A stretch of DNA of 15,463 bases from an uncultured Elusimicrobium sp. (lineage in GTDB: Bacteria; Elusimicrobiota; Elusimicrobia; Elusimicrobiales; Elusimicrobiaceae): assembly GCA_946061795.1 (NCBI GenBank), contig CAMGSK010000016.1, positions 1-15,463 of the forward strand, in the 5' to 3' direction. The notes under the pieces were generated by a model. That model saw only the letters and a list, made by a program, of their open reading frames with translations. It had not been told where the DNA came from and searched no databases. Each line of letters begins with the position of its first letter. Position 1 is the first letter of the stretch. Position numbers and translations under genes: made by a program. Shown here piece by piece: positions 1 through 15,463 of the stretch.

Positions 1-683
1 TCACCTGACTCCCCGCCGTATTTTTCTTTTAAATTTTCTTCAAAGAAGGTCTGCACCCGTTCTATGGCCAGCCGGCGGTTTTCTTCCGTTTTGACGATGC
101 CGTGCGGCACCTGTTTGGGCGTGAGTTCAAACTGGGGTTTGATAAGAAACACGATTTCGCTTTGCGCGGCCATGACCTTAAACAGCGGTTCCATAATCAT
201 CGTCAGCGAAATAAAAGACACATCCACCGCCGCGAACTGCGGCGCGGATTCAAACAAATCCGCCGTCATATATCGGGCATTGGTTTCGGGCTTGAAATGG
301 AAATTTTTATATCGGCGCATTTCGTCGGCCAGCTGGCCTTTGCCCACGTCCACGCCATAGACTTCTTTCGCCCCGGCCTGAATCATACAGTCGGAAAATC
401 CGCCCGTCGCCACGCCGATGTCCACGCATACTTTGTCTTTTATATCAATGTTCCACGCTTTCAGCGCGCCGGCCAGTTTTAAGCCGCCTCGTGAAACGTA
501 GGGACAGGATTTTTCTTTCAAAGACAGGATATCTTCCGGCAGAATCGTGCGGTCGGCCCGTGTGTCCGGCTGGCCGTTAACCAGCACTTCCCCGGCCATA
601 ATGCTGGCCTGGGCGCGGGTGCGGCTGGGGAAAAACCCCTGTTCCACCAGGGCCATGTCCAGGCGGAGTTTTTTATTGGGCAT
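1..683 (-). CDS. tlyA: TlyA-family rRNA 2'-O-methyltransferase (hemolysin A-like), 3' end outside the window
   Basis: The frame starts at the ATG complementary to 681-683 and stays open to the left edge, giving 227 residues; the family usually runs about 245-270, so a short C-terminus is missing. Residues 6-55 form an S4 RNA-binding domain. A Rossmann methyltransferase domain follows, with SAM motif VDIGVATGGFSD (87-98), DVSFISL (154-160) and LIKPQFE (180-186). Known family members methylate 2'-hydroxyls of 16S and/or 23S rRNA in the cytoplasm; some also show haemolytic activity, and the sequence cannot say which role applies. The start overlaps the end of xseB by 11 nt with only a weak ribosome site, so it is probably translated by coupling as the last visible gene of the pheS operon. 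Confidence 0.93.
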   Translation of the reverse strand, partial: MPNKKLRLDMALVEQGFFPSRTRAQASIMAGEVLVNGQPDTRADRTILPEDILSLKEKSCPYVSRGGLKLAGALKAWNIDIKDKVCVDIGVATGGFSDCMIQAGAKEVYGVDVGKGQLADEMRRYKNFHFKPETNARYMTADLFESAPQFAAVDVSFISLTMIMEPLFKVMAAQSEIVFLIKPQFELTPKQVPHGIVKTEENRRLAIERVQTFFEENLKEKYGGESG

Positions 684-924
684 CGTCGCTCTCGTTTGCG
701 TCGCCTTGCGGCGTGTCAAAAGGTTCGCTCAGCAGGGCCGCGCCTTTTTTCTTGAGCGCGACCACCTTAAACTTTACTTCCTGCAGCTGTTGGGTCAGTT
801 CTTTGGACAGCGTGACGCCTTCTTCAAACAGTTTGACCGAAGCGTCCAAGTCCGTTTGTTCTTCTTCCAGCTTGGCCACGATGTCTTCCAAGCGGTTTAA
901 TTTGTGTTCAAATCCGTTTTTCAT
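673..924 (-). CDS. xseB: Exodeoxyribonuclease VII small subunit
   Basis: This 83-residue protein has the XseB signature of an amphipathic helical hairpin: FEHKLNRLEDIVAKLEEEQ at 5-23, then LDASVKLFEEGVTLSKEL, followed by a polar Asp/Asn-rich tail. XseB binds the coiled coil of XseA in exonuclease VII, which degrades single-stranded DNA from both ends in cytoplasmic repair. The start overlaps the xseA stop in an ATGA arrangement, and a strong GGAGG lies 5 nt before the ATG, inside the xseA end. That suits stoichiometric production of the small subunit, several copies of which sit on each XseA in known enzymes. Length and position right after xseA are typical. Confidence 0.95.
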   Translation of the reverse strand: MKNGFEHKLNRLEDIVAKLEEEQTDLDASVKLFEEGVTLSKELTQQLQEVKFKVVALKKKGAALLSEPFDTPQGDANESDDAQ

Positions 925-2126
925 TTGACCTCCGCATGTATCATGCCGTCTTTGACCTGAATGTAAATGGTTTCTTGTTCCTGCGTTTGGCCGACGCGGG
1001 AAATTACCCGGCCTTCGGCGTTGCGCGTAATGCTGTAGCCGCGTCTCAGTACGGCAAAGGGACTCAAGGCGCTAAGTTTGTGTTCCAGCAGTTCCAGCCG
1101 TGTCTGCGCCGAGAGCAGGAGTTTTTCAAACGCGTTTTCCAGCGCGAGCATCAGCTCGTCCACGCGCTGTTCTTTTTCCTGCGTCAAGAGTTCCGGGCGT
1201 TTAAACACCCGGCTGCTGGTTGCCAGCTCCAGACGGGATTTTGCGCGTTCGTAAAACAGGCTGACGGACTGGAAAAGCCTCTTTTGCAGTTGGGCGATGT
1301 GTTCGGCCACGCCTTGCGCGTTTTGCACCACCAGTTCCGCCGCGGCGGAGGGGGTGGGAGCGCGCAAATCCGCCACAAAATCCGCAATAGTAAAATCTAT
1401 TTCGTGCCCGACGCAGGAAATCACCGGGATTTTGCTGGCGTAAATGGCGCGCGCGACGGGTTCTTCGTTAAACGCCCAAAGGTCTTCCATACTGCCGCCG
1501 CCGCGGCCCACCAGCAGCACGTCCGGCGCGGGCTTTAAGGCGTTTAAATCCGCAATCCCTTGCGCAATCTGTTCCGCCGCTCCTTCCCCCTGCACCAACG
1601 CCGGCGCAAGGATGACTTCCAGATTGGGGCTTCTGCGGCGCAGGACGGACAAGATGTCGCGTATGGCGGCCCCCGTGGGGGACGTCACCACGCCTACGCG
1701 GCGCGGAAAAGCGGGCAGCGGTTTTTTGTGCTCTTGGGCAAACAGGCCTTCGGCTTCCAGCTTCTTTTTGAGTTTTTCAAATTCTAAAAATAAGTTGCCT
1801 TTGTGCAGCGCTTCTGCGGTTTTGACGACGATTTGATACCGCCCCTGCTTGGCGTAGCAGGACAAATCCCCGAATACGCGCACTTGCACGCCTTCCTGCA
1901 AATCCATGCCGTTTTTACGCGCATCCCATTTAAACATTACGGCGGAAAGCAGTGCGTCGCGGTCTTTCAAATCAAAATAGACGTGTCCGCTGGAGGCTTC
2001 GCGCAGGCCGCTGATTTCTCCTTCCACAAACACGCCGCGGAACACCCCTTCCATCATTTGTTTAATGGCCAGGGTAATGGCGGTGACGGAAAAAACCTGT
2101 CCTCTGAACGGAGCTTCGGGTTCCAT
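921..2126 (-). CDS. xseA: Exodeoxyribonuclease VII large subunit
   Basis: The protein has 401 residues, somewhat shorter than the roughly 450 of the E. coli and Bacillus forms. An N-terminal OB-fold (about 8-105) binds single-stranded DNA. The catalytic core carries the family motifs VGVVTSPTGAAIRD (144-157), GRGGGSMEDLWAFNEE (207-222), PVISCVGHEIDFTI (234-247) and ADLRAPTPSAAAE (252-264). A charged coiled coil for XseB binding follows, and the C-terminus is the usual short beta-rich piece with LRRGYSIT. It is the nuclease subunit of exonuclease VII. Its ATG directly abuts the rarA stop codon, with AAAGGA 6 nt upstream, so it is tightly coupled to rarA. The small size probably reflects a shorter coiled coil; no catalytic motif is missing. 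Confidence 0.96.
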   Translation of the reverse strand: MEPEAPFRGQVFSVTAITLAIKQMMEGVFRGVFVEGEISGLREASSGHVYFDLKDRDALLSAVMFKWDARKNGMDLQEGVQVRVFGDLSCYAKQGRYQIVVKTAEALHKGNLFLEFEKLKKKLEAEGLFAQEHKKPLPAFPRRVGVVTSPTGAAIRDILSVLRRRSPNLEVILAPALVQGEGAAEQIAQGIADLNALKPAPDVLLVGRGGGSMEDLWAFNEEPVARAIYASKIPVISCVGHEIDFTIADFVADLRAPTPSAAAELVVQNAQGVAEHIAQLQKRLFQSVSLFYERAKSRLELATSSRVFKRPELLTQEKEQRVDELMLALENAFEKLLLSAQTRLELLEHKLSALSPFAVLRRGYSITRNAEGRVISRVGQTQEQETIYIQVKDGMIHAEVK

Positions 2127-3371
2127 TTATTGTCCTTTTATTTTTTTCAGCCGCTCTATCAGAGGGCCTTCTTTGCCTTGGGAAGTGGGGTGAAAAAATT
2201 GCACCGGGTCTGGCATGTATTGCTGTTTGACGTAATGGTTGGGGTAGTCGTGCGCGTATTTGTAGCCTTGGTTCTTGCCGCCGGAGCGCAAATGGTCCGG
2301 CACGCGGCGCAGTTTGCCTTCGCGCACTTCTTTGAGCGCGGCGTCTATGGCCAGATAAGCAGAGTTGCTTTTGGGCGCGCAGGCCACGTAAATGGCCGCG
2401 TGCGCCAGCGGAATGCGCACTTCCGGCATACCCAGCACTTCGGCGGATTTAAAAGCGGCTTGCGCAATCATTAAGGCGGCCGGTTCGGCCAGCCCCACGT
2501 CTTCGCTGGCGCAAATCAAAATGCGCCGCGCGATGAAGCGCGGGTCTTCCCCGCTTTCCAGCATGCGGGCCAGCCAGTACACGGCGGCGTCTGGGTCGGA
2601 GCCGCGCATAGATTTGATAAAGGCGGAAATAACGTCATAATGTTCATCGCCTTTTTTGTCATAATTAAGGTGACGCTTTTGGATGCATTCTTTGGCGGCG
2701 GGCAAATCCACTTGTTTGAGGCCGTTTGCGTCCGGCTCCGTGGTCAGGGAAGCGATTTCCAACGCGTTGAGCATTTTGCGGCCGTCGCCGTTGGCCTGGG
2801 TGATGAAATATTGCGCAGCTTCGTCGGTAAGGCTGACGCGTTCTTTGTCCGCCGCGCGCAGCAGAATTTTGCGTAAATCTTTGTCTTCCAGCGGTTTAAA
2901 TTCAAATACGGAAAAGCGTGAAAGCAGTGCGCTGTTGACGTAAAAATACGGGTTTTCCGTGGTAATGCCGATGAGAATTACGTCCCCGCGTTCCACGCTG
3001 GGCAGCAGGACATCCTGCTGGGTTTTATTGAAGTGGTGTATTTCGTCCAAAATAAGCAGGGTGCGCCGCTCTTCAAAGGAAGGCGTGCGCATGCGTTCTT
3101 TGGCTTCGGCCAGCACTTTTTTCAGGTCCGCCACGCCCGCGGCGGCGGCGTTGAGCTCCACCACGTGCGCCTGCGTACGGCTGGCCACGTAACGCGCGGT
3201 GGCCGTTTTGCCGCAGCCCGGCGGCCCGAAAAACACGGCGGATTTGAGCGTGTCCGTCTCCAGCAGGCGGCGCAGCATTTTTCCCTCGCCCAGCAGATGC
3301 GGCTGTCCGGCGAAGTCTTCAATGCTTTTCGGGGCCTGTCTGGCGGCCAGGGGCATGAAATCGTCTTGCAT
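2127..3371 (-). CDS. rarA: RarA/MgsA-type AAA+ ATPase (replication-associated recombination protein A)
   Basis: This 414-residue AAA+ protein has Walker A GPPGCGKT (49-56), Walker B LLILDE (105-110), a sensor-1 region with GITTENP (135-141) and arginine finger SRF (151-153). The C-terminal half carries the typical MgsA segments, for example [19 protein letters not shown] and [13 protein letters not shown]. Known family members (RarA, MgsA, eukaryotic WRNIP1) are clamp-loader-like tetramers acting at stalled replication forks. The start lies 4 nt after the zapA stop with no clear Shine-Dalgarno, so translation is probably coupled. Its position just upstream of the xseAB nuclease genes puts several DNA-maintenance functions on one transcript. 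A RuvB assignment is rejected because the C-terminus matches RarA. Confidence 0.95.
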
Positions 3372-8368: not shown

Positions 8369-9232
8369 ATGGACAAAGAAAGACTGATGGACCTTTTGCG
8401 CAATCCGAAAAAGTTCCAAAAGAAAAAAAACGACAGCAAATCAACCTCCGTTCAGCAAACCACCCAGGAGGAAAAAGCCGCCAGAAAAGCTTCTTCCGAC
8501 CGGATGGCGGTAATCGCCGCGGGCGGCGTGGCGGCGTTGGCGCTGCTGTCTCTTTTGTTTGTTTTTTCCGCCAGCAAGCGCGCCGAGAACGTGACGGCCG
8601 CGCTGGATCCGGCCATTCTCAAAGGCCTGGTGGCGGACCGGACGTTTCATCCCGGAGGAGGCGTGCGCTATGTGCAGGTGGGGCAGGGGCATGAGCGCAA
8701 CGTCAGCGTGACGGGCGCGGGGGCCGGTTCGGTTATTCCGGTCATCAGCCGCTACAATTTCCGGGCGCTGACTCCGCAAAATTACGCCATTATCGGTACG
8801 GCTCCGTTTGCTTTGTCTATAAACGTGGATTCCAATGCCGAAGACCCCGATTTGCTGCGCTATTTGTTCAACGACCAAAACGTGACGGACGCTTTTTTGG
8901 CTCGCCCGGATGTGGCCCCTTATTTGGCCGATCCGGCTGCTTTGGCCAAATTGGCGGCAGATAAGACGGCAGTGGACGCTTTTTTGGCTGACGCCACCGT
9001 ACAGCGGGTGCTTGCTTCAGCCGAGCTGACGAAAGCTTTGGCCGGCAGCCGTTTGTTTTCTTCCATGTTAATCAGTAAGGCGGTAAAATATTACCGGGAC
9101 CGTCCCGCCCAAGCGGCGAAACTGATCAACTCTAGTCCCTCTTTGGCCGCGCTGAAAAAGAATCCGAACCTGCGGCAGGCCGTGGCGGAGAACCGGTATT
9201 TAAAAAATATATCGGCTACACTTTTAAAATAA
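8369..9232 (+). CDS. Unrecognised single-pass membrane protein with helical repeats
   Basis: I do not recognise this 287-residue protein. Residues 1-45 are hydrophilic and Lys-rich (KKFQKKK at 15-20 and nearby), and residues 46-68 form one hydrophobic membrane helix. The remainder, about 69-287, should lie outside the cytoplasm by the positive-inside rule. Residues 169-226 contain two 29-residue repeats, each with DAFLA then V...LA (aligned offsets D174/D203 and F176/F205). The tail continues with short Pro/Asn-capped helices (NSSPSLAALKKNPNLRQAV), somewhat like STI1-type DP repeats. The start is the first ATG in frame; a second ATG at residue 7 is possible. The gene has its own promoter, is followed by the tRNA-Gly promoter, and is monocistronic. 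Confidence 0.8.
   Translation: MDKERLMDLLRNPKKFQKKKNDSKSTSVQQTTQEEKAARKASSDRMAVIAAGGVAALALLSLLFVFSASKRAENVTAALDPAILKGLVADRTFHPGGGVRYVQVGQGHERNVSVTGAGAGSVIPVISRYNFRALTPQNYAIIGTAPFALSINVDSNAEDPDLLRYLFNDQNVTDAFLARPDVAPYLADPAALAKLAADKTAVDAFLADATVQRVLASAELTKALAGSRLFSSMLISKAVKYYRDRPAQAAKLINSSPSLAALKKNPNLRQAVAENRYLKNISATLLK
8873..9046 (+). repeat. Tandem 87-bp (29-residue) repeat inside the 8369 gene
   Basis: Two adjacent in-frame units encode residues 169-197 and 198-226. The clearest DNA identity is the 15-mer GACGCTTTTTTGGCT at 8888-8902 and again at 8975-8989, exactly 87 nt apart. Outside this core the units are diverged but keep the V-x3-LA pattern. Confidence 0.7.
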
Positions 9233-9265: not shown

Positions 9266-9339
9266 GCGGGCGTGGTTCAATGGTAGAACACGACCTTGCC
9301 AAGGTTGAGACGAGGGTTCGATTCCCTTCGCCCGCTCCA
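9266..9339 (+). tRNA. tRNA-Gly (anticodon GCC)
   Basis: A complete 74-nt cloverleaf is visible. The acceptor stem GCGGGCG (9266-9272) pairs with CGCCCGC (9329-9335), followed by discriminator T and an encoded CCA (9337-9339). The anticodon stem CGACC/GGTTG closes the loop TTGCCAA with GCC at 9298-9300, which reads GGC/GGT codons. The T arm has the usual GGTTCGATTCC loop region. It stands alone, with its own promoter and terminator. Confidence 0.97.
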
Positions 9340-11477: not shown

Positions 11478-14400
11478 ATGAAAAAAATACTCTCTCTGTT
11501 TCTTTCCTGCTGTATCCTGTTCACGTCGATAGCGCCGTCGTGGGCGCAGGCGCGCGGGAACGGGCGGCGTCCAGCTAGGCGGCCAGCTGCGCGGCCGGTG
11601 GCGGGGACGAATGTATTTTCGCAATGGATGGCGCCGCAGAAGACGTTGGAGCAATGCAAGAAGCTGAAACAGGACACGGAAGCGGCCTTGTATGGGGTGA
11701 TGATGACGGCTCCTGTGCCGCAGAAAGTTTTCAATGAGAAGTACGGTGCCTGGTTAAACAGCGGATGTTTAAGGCGGTGGGGTGCGTTTTTAAATGGCAA
11801 TGTAGGGAACATGGTGAATTTGTCGGGCAGTATAGGGCGGACGGACTATTTGTGGTATGTAAGTAATTTTAATGCGCGCAAAGAGGCTAATGACCGGGTG
11901 GTACAGAATCGTCGTCAGGCGGCGGAGAAGAAGAAGGATCCTGTGGAGCATATAAAGGCGATGTTGGCGCAGCGTCAGGCAAATGCGCGTGCTGCGACGG
12001 CGGAAGCGCGGCGGCGTGGGCAGGCGACGATAGGGCCTTCTGTATCTACGGCGAAGAAATATGTAGGGATATCTGGGGAGTTGAGCTTGGTATGTAAATT
12101 TGGGCAGGGGAGAGGGACGGACAAGTGCACGTTTGGGGAGGTAAAGAATCTTAGGGGGCAGGTGGTGTTGAAAGGGCTGACGCTGACGAAGCAAGAGTGG
12201 TCGTGGGCGGGGTTGCGTTGGGATTTGGAGCACATTTGGAATAAACCGGACTGGAATATAGGGGAGAGTTATGACCGGGCGACTGGGCAAAACTATCCTA
12301 ATGGGGAGTTGGTAGGCAACAGTGTGGATATAGTGCGCAACATAGAGCAGTACGGGGTGGCGTATAAAGATGAAGGGAAAGCGCGTGCGCATTTAATTAC
12401 GATGTTGAAGCGGAAAGGGTTGTGTGAGGATAACCGGAGCTACTGGAAGACTCGTTCTATGAGTCAATTGGAGCAGCAGCGCAAGGTCAACGCGGCGGAG
12501 TTTAAATTTGCGCAGGAAGTGTCGCCTTTGTGCGGATTTAGCTTGGAGGTGATGGAAGGGTTAGCGGTGATTGCGGCGCAGCATAAGGACCAGACAGCGG
12601 AGCAGGGGATTTATGATTTTATGGCGGCGAAGCACCGCGGTGCGTTTGGCGGGATGATCGTTGCGCATGGAGTGGCGATGTTGATGGGTATTTCGACGGG
12701 GACATCGTATGGAAAAATGAGAGTATTTTTGGAGAGTCATGCCAAGCCGAGCACCGGGGAAAACATTTTAAATGCGCTGTCGTATGTATCGTTGGAGGGC
12801 GTGGGGAACGCGGCGGAAGAAGTTTCGACCGATGGGAAGTATTTGAATGACTATACGGAGCGGTTTGGATATTTGGATGATGTAAAGGCGAAGGAATATA
12901 ATCCGGGGTTAGACGTAGGGATGGTGACGAAGCAGGCGTTTACGCCTGGGTGGAAGTACCAGCTGCCGATGGGGAACGTGTATGAAGACATTGGGGAAAT
13001 GCTGGCGATGGACGTGGGAAACGGCTACACGAAGGCGGTAGGGAAGAAGATCCTTAACGGGGGATATGCGACGCCGCTGAAGGTGGGGTTGTTGGTTGGT
13101 AATGAAGGGAAATTTGCGGTGTATGCGTTTGGGAAGGAGAAGGCGGCGAAATATTGGAAAGGGCTGTTGGCGATGGATTTTACGGATATGAACGAAGGGA
13201 CGCAGCGGCGGATGAAAGAGCGGGCTGCGGTAGCGTTGGCTAAGAACAAGTATTTTACAGCGGAGCAGGCGAAGAAGTACGGCGAGAAAGACGAAGGGAA
13301 GTTTGCCCGGTACCGCCGGATGGGGAAGGTGAAATCCGTATTAGGCGGGATGGATTTGGTGATCATGGTGGTTTGTTTGCCGGCGTTAATCCGTGGTTTG
13401 GCCAACGGCGGGATGAAGATAATGAGCAAAATCGGCAAAATCCGCGGTTTTGCCAAAGCGTCCAAGCCGGCGACGAGGGCGGTGACGTCCACGCGGGGTT
13501 TGACGAGTACAGCGTCACGCGGGAGCAGAGGAGCGTCGGCGGCGACGAAAGCGCCAAAGAAACCGGCAGCAGCCAAGAAGCCGGCGGCTCCGAAGAGCCA
13601 GCCGAAAGTGAAGACGCAGCCGAAGGCAAAGGCGCAGCCGAAAGTGAAATCGCAACCGAAGGGACAGGGCGGGAGCCAGGCCGGAGCGGGTCGGTCTTCA
13701 TCGGGAGCGGCAGCTTCGCAAGCGGAAGGAGCGCATGCGGCGGGTCGCGGAGCGGTGTCTGCGGAAAATGCGGCTAACGGAACGGGAGCTGGGAATAAAG
13801 CTCCTGCGGAAGCGGCTGCGTTGCCGGAGAATACGGGTTTGAAAGTAAAAGAAGTGCGGGTGCGGGAAAACGGGATGGCGGAAATGAGGGTGGAAACGCC
13901 GGAAGCGGTGCTGAAGGCGGGCTTGACGACGGAAAAGACCACGGTTATTGAGACGCTTAATACGACGGAGGCGATGGGACGCGGCCTTGCCGAGCAGCAA
14001 AGAGTGTGGGCGAGACAGTTGGAGACGTTGAACCAGCTGGATCGATTAAGTTTTGTAGAATCAGGCGGAATTAGATTGTATGACTTGCCTGACGGGACGA
14101 AGGCGATGTTGCCTGTGGAGGCGGCGGCGAGAGCAGATGCTGCGGCCGGAATGAATTTGACGGCGAATGTGGCGCGTGCGGAACGTTTTGCCGGCGTAGG
14201 GGAAGCGGTGTCCGGAAGCGTTGGCAGCGGACCGAAGGTTGCCCCTGCGGTGGTGAAGAGCGGTTCTACGGCGAGGGGAGCGTCTGCGCCGAGGACGTTT
14301 GTGTTGGCCTCGGACGGGAAGGTGATCCCTGGCCGTATTGGTACGCCGGTGGATGTTGGTCCGAAGCCTTCGTTTGGGAAGATGTTGGGTGAGCGCGTGA

Positions 14401-15463
14401 AGTGGAACTGGAACCTCTTTAAAGTAGGAGTAAAAGACGGGGTAAGCCAAACCATGAACGCTCTGCGGACGAAGACGGGTGCTGCGGTGTTGGCTTTGTC
14501 TATGAATTTGACTCCCGTACCTGCAACGGTGGCGGATGCTGCGGGAGTGTTGAACGGCGTGGTCAAGACGGAACAGGTGGCGGCGAGAGCGGGCGGAGCA
14601 GTCAGCGAACTGAGCAAGGTGGAACAGGCTTTGAACATGGTGGAGCAGGGTTCCCGTGCGCGGAGCTTGATGCAGGTGGGCCGCGGGATGAAAGCGGTCC
14701 ATAATTTGACGTTTGCGGACCGGCTGGAGCATGCGGCCGTGACGGCTGCGCGTGCGGCGTCTGCTGCGGAGCAAGGCAGCCGTGCACCGGTGGCGCTGGC
14801 CGGATTTTTGCCTGCGGTGGCTACGCCGGGCGAGATCAGACAGTTTGGCCGCTTCTGGGATAAAGCCAGAGGCAGCAGCTATATCCCCGGCGTCAATATG
14901 TTTAAAGAGACGGCGAAGGACTATCTCAAAGATGTGGCGCGTTTTGAAAAAGCCTCTTTGATTAGTGCGGAGTCTGCCATAGACGTGGCGCAAGCGTCTC
15001 CCATAGAAATCAGCCGTATCATCGCGCAGTCTCCGACGCAGTTCTCGGAGAGCGCAGTCAAAGAAGCGCAGAATGTGCTGGCCTTTAATGAACATAGCGT
15101 GCGCGTGGCGCGCTTCCTTAGCGGCAACCGTGCCGTGCAAATGGCGTATGACCGTGCCGGATACCCGATTACGGGCAAAATCCAGACCGCCATCGCCAAT
15201 GCCCAAGACGCAGTCTATGTTAACGTTGTAGCGCCGATACAGTTGCGCAATAATCCGTATTACCGCGCCGCCCGTGCCGTGAAACAGGCCGCGCCGTCCA
15301 CCGTGGCGAGCGTGGTGGGTGAAAAGGTGCAAGGCGTGCTGAGTGGATTGGTGCAGGCCGACGGGACGTTGAATATGCCGGCGGTGAGATCGTATGTGCT
15401 GCAAACGGTGAGAGCGCATACGCCGCGCAATACGTCGGGCGTATTGAGCATGAACGGATTGGG
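11478..15463 (+). CDS. Giant secreted protein of unknown family, 5' part (at least 1,328 codons, open at the right edge)
   Basis: One frame runs from the ATG at 11478 (AAAGGA 5 nt upstream) to the window end with no stop. I do not recognise it. Residues 1-23 or 1-25 are a signal peptide (MKKILSLFLSCCILFTSIAP, then SWAQA), so it is exported. Next come an Arg/Pro/Ala-rich stretch (26-43) and a domain to about residue 620 with several Cys, which could be disulfide-bonded, and many Trp/Tyr. Residues 625-638 (MDLVIMVVCLPALI) are a weak hydrophobic segment. A Lys/Pro/Ala linker (690-731) follows, with QPKxKx repeats at 708-731, and then long Ala-rich helical stretches to the edge. Glycine codon GGG dominates the first half but is rare at the end. 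Possible roles are a surface, envelope-scaffold or contact-dependent protein; none is shown. Confidence 0.85.
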   Translation, partial: MKKILSLFLSCCILFTSIAPSWAQARGNGRRPARRPAARPVAGTNVFSQWMAPQKTLEQCKKLKQDTEAALYGVMMTAPVPQKVFNEKYGAWLNSGCLRRWGAFLNGNVGNMVNLSGSIGRTDYLWYVSNFNARKEANDRVVQNRRQAAEKKKDPVEHIKAMLAQRQANARAATAEARRRGQATIGPSVSTAKKYVGISGELSLVCKFGQGRGTDKCTFGEVKNLRGQVVLKGLTLTKQEWSWAGLRWDLEHIWNKPDWNIGESYDRATGQNYPNGELVGNSVDIVRNIEQYGVAYKDEGKARAHLITMLKRKGLCEDNRSYWKTRSMSQLEQQRKVNAAEFKFAQEVSPLCGFSLEVMEGLAVIAAQHKDQTAEQGIYDFMAAKHRGAFGGMIVAHGVAMLMGISTGTSYGKMRVFLESHAKPSTGENILNALSYVSLEGVGNAAEEVSTDGKYLNDYTERFGYLDDVKAKEYNPGLDVGMVTKQAFTPGWKYQLPMGNVYEDIGEMLAMDVGNGYTKAVGKKILNGGYATPLKVGLLVGNEGKFAVYAFGKEKAAKYWKGLLAMDFTDMNEGTQRRMKERAAVALAKNKYFTAEQAKKYGEKDEGKFARYRRMGKVKSVLGGMDLVIMVVCLPALIRGLANGGMKIMSKIGKIRGFAKASKPATRAVTSTRGLTSTASRGSRGASAATKAPKKPAAAKKPAAPKSQPKVKTQPKAKAQPKVKSQPKGQGGSQAGAGRSSSGAAASQAEGAHAAGRGAVSAENAANGTGAGNKAPAEAAALPENTGLKVKEVRVRENGMAEMRVETPEAVLKAGLTTEKTTVIETLNTTEAMGRGLAEQQRVWARQLETLNQLDRLSFVESGGIRLYDLPDGTKAMLPVEAAARADAAAGMNLTANVARAERFAGVGEAVSGSVGSGPKVAPAVVKSGSTARGASAPRTFVLASDGKVIPGRIGTPVDVGPKPSFGKMLGERVKWNWNLFKVGVKDGVSQTMNALRTKTGAAVLALSMNLTPVPATVADAAGVLNGVVKTEQVAARAGGAVSELSKVEQALNMVEQGSRARSLMQVGRGMKAVHNLTFADRLEHAAVTAARAASAAEQGSRAPVALAGFLPAVATPGEIRQFGRFWDKARGSSYIPGVNMFKETAKDYLKDVARFEKASLISAESAIDVAQASPIEISRIIAQSPTQFSESAVKEAQNVLAFNEHSVRVARFLSGNRAVQMAYDRAGYPITGKIQTAIANAQDAVYVNVVAPIQLRNNPYYRAARAVKQAAPSTVASVVGEKVQGVLSGLVQADGTLNMPAVRSYVLQTVRAHTPRNTSGVLSMNGL
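13599..13670 (+). repeat. Four 18-bp tandem units encoding QPKxKx in the giant gene
   Basis: The units at 13599, 13617, 13635 and 13653 encode QPKVKT, QPKAKA, QPKVKS and QPKGQG (residues 708-731). They sit within a wider Lys/Ala/Pro-rich linker from residue 690. The basic, Pro-spaced composition resembles periplasm-spanning or wall-contacting linkers such as that of TonB. The copy number could vary by slippage. Confidence 0.85.

What the first reader, a model, noticed from the sequence alone, without database searches (positions are those of the whole stretch)
11478..15463. Very large exported protein of no recognisable family
Seen: a signal peptide followed by at least 1,300 further residues without a stop, a Cys-containing first domain, a weak hydrophobic segment, a basic Pro-rich linker and Ala-rich helices. 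No enzyme, adhesin, autotransporter or secretion motif that I know is present. Inference: it is a lineage-specific envelope or surface protein built from two or more domains. A gene this big is a costly investment in an otherwise compact region.
Basis: partly seen in the sequence, partly recalled or inferred. Interest (0 to 1): 0.85.

Follow-up and report, generated by a model that had tools for sequence, protein, structure and literature searches.

The report
Giant membrane protein with recombining cassette
A gut bacterium's huge transporter-like membrane protein carries a long front section that seems to be copied between, and swapped among, several giant genes, and whose DNA shows the same odd G-rich strand seen in a known bacterial gene-shuffling system.

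Summary
The ORF is real (11478 to contig end, 1328 codons, ribosome site, signal peptide), but it is only the front of a gene. Its last 55 nt are also, identically, the first 55 nt of two other contigs of the genome, C33 and C35, which continue in frame into MFS-transporter modules. C33 is the likelier continuation. The protein belongs to a giant modular family met in one family only (Elusimicrobiaceae by record titles): signal peptide, alpha-helical solenoid-like core, one TM helix, basic linker, MFS domain, variable extras. The front looks like a recombination cassette. In a single-contig relative, presumably Elusimicrobium minutum, three giant genes share 2994-3095 bp at 100% identity between different signal peptides and C-termini; two database proteins 97% identical in the C-terminal part have fronts only 22% identical. 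Such shared fronts are extremely G-rich and C-poor on the coding strand, also at synonymous sites (four-fold skew +0.70 to +1.00 in 6 of 53 cores, -0.65 to +0.33 in the others); a blind change-point on the window contig returns 11540-14775. Concerted evolution plus G-skew is the double signature of Borrelia vls cassettes. "Lineage-specific multidomain protein" is right; inner membrane is likelier than surface. Conversion and function are inferred.

The parts
11478..15463 (+). 5' part of the giant gene (1328 codons, open at the contig end)
11467..11472 (+). ribosome binding site-like AAAGGA
   Evidence: read from the sequence
11478..11552 (+). signal peptide, aa 1-25 (hydrophobic core then S-W-A-Q-A); N-terminal stretch similar in several paralogues
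   Evidence: cleavage site judged by eye
11540..14775 (+). G-over-C skewed cassette (G fraction of G+C 0.68 inside, 0.51 outside), the single best segment of the whole contig
   Evidence: synonymous-site counts
12165..13496 (+). conserved alpha-helical core (solenoid-like), predicted periplasmic
12423..12425 (+). Cys316, invariant in 14 of 14 aligned cores
12531..12533 (+). Cys352, invariant in 14 of 14 aligned cores; possible disulfide partner of Cys316 (inferred)
13335..13391 (+). transmembrane helix aa 620-638
13392..13727 (+). very basic Pro/Ala/Lys-rich linker aa 639-750, predicted cytoplasmic
14472..14534 (+). KTGAA... hydrophobic segment aa 999-1019; judged by eye to match the place (HPVKTMGAAG) where proteins P0014 and P0016 become nearly identical again
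15123..15278 (+). hinge motif aa 1216-1267 (YDRAGYPITG...RNNPYY) shared by many paralogues; some contigs of other genomes begin or end here
15409..15463 (+). 55 nt identical to the starts of contigs C33 and C35 of the same genome: end of the shared stretch and assembly fork

Best explanation
The ORF is the front of a giant modular inner-membrane protein gene of Elusimicrobiaceae. After the signal peptide a periplasmic alpha-helical, solenoid-like domain is held by one TM helix; a basic linker lies in the cytoplasm; the chain goes on (most likely in contig C33, about 2,380 aa in all) into an MFS-type domain. Sister genes carry MFS plus a 5'-nucleotidase-like domain, two MFS stretches, a HAD hydrolase or a trypsin-like domain. 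The front section, from just behind the signal peptide to about aa 1100-1330, is a DNA cassette that homologous recombination (gene conversion) copies between the paralogous loci of one genome and that is exchanged for divergent versions between lineages, so a set of transporter/enzyme backs is offered with homogenised, replaceable front domains. The extreme G-rich coding strand of such cassettes is either what promotes the conversion (R-loop or exposed G-rich single strand) or its mark. Shown: architecture, shared identical DNA, different fronts on nearly identical backs, skew and its edges, at least three changes of skew state on the tree. Inferred: inner-membrane topology, gene conversion and that it is ongoing, the role of the skew, transport function, and that the driver is evasion of something that binds the front domain (phage, bacteriocin or predator).
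For: Assembly fork: window 15409-15463 is 100% identical to the first 55 nt of C33 and C35; other matches in the genome are at E 0.4 or worse. C33 is closest to coaD-PHP-locus genes of relatives (53%, 48%, 43%), C35 to a pyruvate-kinase-locus gene (53% and 42%), so they are two loci. Single-contig genome G112: three genes share 2994-3095 bp at 100%, with different signal peptides and C-termini. Homogenisation rather than a young locus: at the first G112 locus the two upstream neighbours are 59% and 51% identical in same-genus G220, while the giant core is 27% over 143 aa with no DNA match. Swapped fronts: P0014 vs P0016 signal peptide 94%, front 22%, C-terminal part 97%; 14 of 36 pairs are of this kind. 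Skew: four-fold sites C 0.04, G 0.47 in the G112 cassette versus C 0.20-0.24, G 0.16-0.20 in the C-terminal parts; window G:C 335:62 versus 524:605 in seven neighbour genes, p 1.5e-42. Edges: skew segment gene nt 186-3139 versus identity 189-3182. 5 of 5 genomes with a skewed front share 94-100% identical stretches with a second gene or contig; 0 of 10 non-skewed genomes whose fronts were compared have an exact match over 23 nt. At least 3 changes of state on the tree. MFS.
Against: No recombination was observed, only its products. In four of five skewed genomes the second copy is known only from shared contig ends or short stretches; only G112 is a single contig. The 5-versus-10 comparison is uneven: skewed genomes got a whole-genome DNA search, the others only a comparison of loci already found. 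Four genomes were left out as unclassed: G001 and G005 (shared ends of 131 and 127 nt, cassette not assembled) and G022 and G032 (one member begins at the hinge, so fronts could not be compared). Contigs also break inside giant genes of non-skewed genomes (G120, G255, G216), so a break alone proves nothing. G007 is strongly skewed in its C-terminal half, second copy not searched for; G034 has a 1391-bp, 99.6% in-frame duplication with only weak skew. No canonical G4 motif in the window gene or the G112 cassette. No silent cassette array was seen. The organisms behind P0014-P0022 are unnamed, so 'strains' is a guess. Structure models are of modest confidence (mean pLDDT 59 and 64, pTM 0.52 and 0.40).
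Confidence: 0.68

Rival explanations
1. An ordinary lineage-specific envelope protein; shared segments are just recent duplications that have not had time to diverge, with no special recombination.
For: Elusimicrobiota are reported to be enriched in huge proteins (PMC11573180, passages); G034 shows a plain internal tandem duplication.
Against: In G112 identity stops sharply on both sides inside three intact ORFs with unrelated flanks and C-termini. One of the three loci clearly exists in G220 too (two upstream neighbours 59% and 51%), and a permease (76%) lies beside a giant gene in both, though on the other side, so at least one locus is older than the identity. Fronts differ on nearly identical backs.
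Confidence: 0.13
2. The cassette is a mobile in-frame element (intein-like or transposed) that spreads between giant genes.
For: Same cassette in three unlinked genes of G112; sharp edges.
Against: Edges differ between pairs (3095 versus 2994 bp); homologous front domains occupy the same place throughout the family. Empty sites were not searched for; none came up.
Confidence: 0.05
3. The G-skew has nothing to do with recombination: it is selection on mRNA (little structure, translation of a giant membrane protein) or the amino-acid make-up.
For: Purines, not G alone, rise (A 0.33, G 0.47 at four-fold sites in G112). G007 is skewed in its C-terminal half with no known second copy.
Against: Skew is seen at synonymous sites; equally giant genes with the same architecture (G070, G010) have none; in G112 skew stops where identity stops although the same mRNA goes on.
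Confidence: 0.3
4. Bin artefact: C33 and C35 come from different strains or a chimeric bin.
For: The genome is a 159-contig assembly of 86% completeness; no reads available.
Against: C33 and C35 modules belong to two different conserved loci of the genus; the same pattern stands in the single-contig genome G112.
Confidence: 0.08

Closest known systems
vls antigenic-variation cassettes of Lyme disease Borrelia
   Same: Marked G-over-C skew on the coding strand confined to the recombining cassettes (0.52 on average there; 0.49-0.73 per 500 nt in the G112 cassette, 0.23-0.45 in the window gene), G runs without a conserved G4 arrangement, concerted evolution within strains, helical protein, a non-varying homologue without the skew (PMC11499132 and PMC3828179, passages seen).
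   Different: Chromosomal in G112; each G112 copy is a full ORF with its own signal peptide; copies identical there rather than about 90%; no silent array seen; the protein is fused to transporter/enzyme modules; unrelated phylum and protein; G+C rise clear in G112 only.
Major facilitator superfamily transporters (Pfam PF07690)
   Different: MFS proteins are usually about 400-500 aa (recalled); here the domain sits behind a front of 1,000 residues or more with a signal peptide, and sometimes before an enzyme domain.
HEAT/ARM-type alpha-solenoids
   Different: No Foldseek match at E<=0.001; may be only a common helical arrangement.
Neisseria pilE and Mycoplasma MgPa gene-conversion systems
   Same: Part of a protein replaced by recombination with divergent versions (recalled; papers seen only as listings).
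   Different: Those use silent partial copies (recalled); none was seen here.

Membership tests
[quoted passage not shown]
vls-type gene-conversion system | raised G+C in the cassette | tested here: inconclusive
   G112: 0.45-0.52 against 0.32-0.45 outside; window gene 0.51-0.63 against 0.44-0.57 just upstream
vls-type gene-conversion system | copies within a genome more alike than between relatives | tested here: met
   G112: 100% within; 27% protein identity over 143 aa to G220, no DNA match. Not measurable in the window's own genome, where only 55 shared nt are assembled
vls-type gene-conversion system | one expression site plus silent cassette array | tested here: not met
   in G112 all three copies found are intact ORFs with signal peptides; no array came up, so it is not filed as a member
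vls-type gene-conversion system | recombination observed during growth or infection | not testable with these tools
   needs culture and long reads
Major facilitator superfamily (the continuation, not the window part) | MFS_1 profile above its curated cut-off | tested here: met
   C33 38.0 bits and C35 67.8 bits, cut-off 33.4
Major facilitator superfamily (the continuation, not the window part) | MFS fold | tested here: met
Major facilitator superfamily (the continuation, not the window part) | transport of a substrate | not testable with these tools
   -
HEAT/ARM solenoid proteins | repeat-type alpha-solenoid fold of the core | tested here: inconclusive
Autotransporters, adhesins, defence systems | profile match in Pfam, NCBIfam or PADLOC | tested here: not met
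   window ORF: none above cut-off in Pfam, none at E 0.1 in NCBIfam and PADLOC

The most novel reading that the evidence does not exclude
Elusimicrobiaceae run a chromosomal, vls-like diversification system on giant transporter proteins: strand-asymmetric G-rich cassettes, evolved several times, mark and drive transcription-linked gene conversion that homogenises the front domain across loci and swaps it between lineages. Extreme synonymous G-skew would then be a general, searchable signature of conversion cassettes in bacteria.
Probability: 0.35. Interest if true: 0.92.

Novelty: new variant of a known kind. Interest (0 to 1): 0.8.

Why it matters
Coding-strand G-skew is proposed to matter for vls recombination, and the passages read call the combination unique to vls among the Borrelia systems compared (PMC11499132). 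A second case, in an unrelated phylum and with at least three changes of state on the tree, would make the link between skew and conversion testable by comparison. It may also explain why assemblies of these gut genomes break in their largest genes, and points to an unknown selective agent acting on a periplasmic domain of a transporter. No paper on this protein family or its cassettes turned up in the searches (listings; CC-licensed PMC only; the E. minutum genome paper of 2009 is not held).

Tried and rejected
Protein search with the whole window ORF found nothing and the first scan of genome contigs found no relative; both answers were misleading, since genome and profile searches then found the family. 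Phage records: none. PDB by sequence: none for the ORF at E 1; E 0.63 for the core profile, taken as chance. DUF6688_C (E 0.17) and other sub-cut-off Pfam hits were not used. The missing 3' end was sought through the PHP gene that follows the orthologues: not found in this genome's assembly, so the C33 assignment rests on C-terminal similarity. G4 motifs: none in the window gene or the G112 cassette. Cytosine deamination as cause of the skew: rejected, T does not rise. Foldseek gave no E<=0.001 for the core. The 5570-aa G261 protein was never scanned against Pfam. Rows dropped before the tree: G070C1a, G024C82, G112_1, G120C8 (over-long match ranges), and members matching 250 or fewer profile positions; G024C138 is also not in it. 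A first Fisher test counted 12 non-skewed genomes; G022 and G032 were then taken out because one member has no front, giving 5/0 versus 0/10, p 3.3e-4.
Full report

The gene is cut by a fork. The last 55 nt of the window are identical to the first 55 nt of C33 and C35. Both go on in frame and diverge at once. C33's module is closest to coaD-PHP-locus genes of G032 (53%), G024 (48%) and G006 (43%); C35's to the pyruvate-kinase-locus gene of G022 (53% and 42% in two pieces). So one front is shared by at least two loci, and the window gene most likely continues in C33. In C33 the gene is followed by murC-like and dap-like genes, not PHP, and no PHP relative was found in this assembly, so the assignment is likely, not certain.

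The same in a single-contig genome. Its three giant genes (2741, 2530, 3965 aa) at about 526, 699 and 728 kb share 2994-3095 bp at 100% identity. Identity starts behind different signal peptides and ends before different C-termini. At least one locus is old: same-genus G220 has the glycosyltransferase (59%) and the protein upstream of it (51%) beside a giant gene in the same order, and a permease (76%) beside a giant gene as well, though on its other side; yet the giant core is only 27% identical over 143 aa and gives no DNA match in G112. Fast divergence between species with identity within a genome is concerted evolution, best explained by gene conversion.

Different fronts on nearly identical backs. 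Nine database proteins of 2663-2929 aa (sources unnamed) have two front types: of 36 pairs, 22 are 79-100% and 14 are 21-25% identical over alignment columns 100-900, while signal peptides are 88-100% and the C-terminal part 80-100% identical; in the 14 low pairs the C-terminal part is still 80-100%. P0014 and P0016: 94%, 22%, 97%.

Strand composition. At four-fold sites the G112 cassette has A 0.33, C 0.04, G 0.47, T 0.16 (397 sites); the C-terminal parts of the three genes have A 0.19-0.21, C 0.20-0.24, G 0.16-0.20, T 0.39-0.42. Window, aa 1-600: C 0.07, G 0.68. G:C counts for aa 26-1100 are 335:62 against 524:605 in seven neighbour genes (p 1.5e-42), 515:479 in C33+C35 (p 1.0e-31), 92:80 in the two plus-strand neighbours (p 3.6e-14). 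Over the core, 6 of 53 family members stand at +0.70 to +1.00 (window, three G112, G220, G261), the other 47 between -0.65 and +0.33; G024's skewed gene (+0.75 to +0.80) did not enter that list. A change-point search over the whole window contig, not told where the gene is, returns 11540-14775; in G112 it returns gene nt 186-3139 against identity 189-3182. In the window the skew ends about 690 nt before the shared stretch does. Among 376 ORFs of 250 aa or more in fetched loci (window not included; loci chosen for this family, so a biased sample) 8 exceed +0.6 in a 250-codon stretch, and 8 of 8 are family members or pieces of them; the next is at 0.52.

Skew and sharing go together. Skewed fronts: window, G112, G261, G220, G024. 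All five show a second gene or contig sharing DNA: 55 nt with two contigs; 2994-3095 bp; 141 nt with C22 and C24 (100%) and 296 nt with C37 (96%); 201 nt at 98% with C50, both contigs ending at the same place; 417 nt at 94% with C121. In 10 non-skewed genomes whose fronts could be compared, the longest exact match between loci is at most 23 nt; 5/0 versus 0/10 gives p 3.3e-4, with uneven search effort and four genomes (G001, G005, G022, G032) unclassed. On a 44-row tree of cores the skewed state needs at least 3 changes forced by starred branches (quick tree, SH-aLRT only, G112 on a very long branch). Against: G007's skewed C-terminal half without a known copy, G034's weakly skewed duplication, and contig breaks inside giant genes of non-skewed genomes.

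What it works like. Passages of PMC11499132 report for vls cassettes a mean coding-strand GC skew of 0.52, G runs, no conserved G4 arrangement, and absence of the skew in the non-varying homologue; passages of PMC3828179 report concerted evolution of the cassettes. The Elusimicrobiaceae cassettes show both traits in G112 and the skew in the window. They differ in having no silent array, so I do not file them as vls. My reading: conversion copies the front between loci, possibly helped by R-loops or exposed G-rich strand. Selection by a binder of the periplasmic domain is a guess.

Confidence. Architecture and sharing: high. Gene conversion as cause: about 0.8. Skew causally linked to conversion: about 0.35-0.4. 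Function as transporter with replaceable front: about 0.5.

Noticed in passing
window 9266-9339: tRNA-Gly (gcc) between an unknown conserved ORF and a dgt-like gene.
   Followed up: no
window 8369-9232: 287-aa ORF with a hydrophobic segment near the N-terminus, with similar-looking ORFs in the same place in G010, G070 and G001 (by eye); no Pfam family above cut-off.
   Followed up: partly
L042 8525-9331; L043 11125-11949; L098 6170-6943; L099 10948-11742; L100 2766-3557; L101 4347-5111; L102 5777-6556; L103 7219-8013: A TM protein of about 260 aa, similar-looking by eye, sits directly beside giant genes of one subgroup; the two tested (L099, L101) have no Pfam match. Possible partner.
   Followed up: partly
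L042 9355-14079 (G034): In-frame tandem duplication of 1391 bp at 99.6% identity inside a giant gene.
   Followed up: partly
L043 7821-11057 (G007): C-terminal half with four-fold skew +0.64 to +0.94; a second copy was not searched for.
   Followed up: partly
L099, L100, L037, L048, L121: Genes that look like 5'-nucleotidase/metallophosphatases (by eye) lie beside or near several giant genes, and the C35 protein has such a domain fused.
   Followed up: no
L094 11103-12617; L158 2533-4062; L160 4009-5460: Permeases of about 500 aa (organophosphate-antiporter-like by recall) next to giant genes or pieces of them in two genera.
   Followed up: no
L109 2874-9365 (G070): C-terminal response-regulator-like match (E 2.3e-4, below cut-off) in a giant protein with no TM found beyond the N-terminus.
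   Followed up: no
L134 and L140 (G120, G255): Two genomes share nearly identical core domains (0.005 apart on the tree) but differ just behind the signal peptide: another mosaic.
   Followed up: partly
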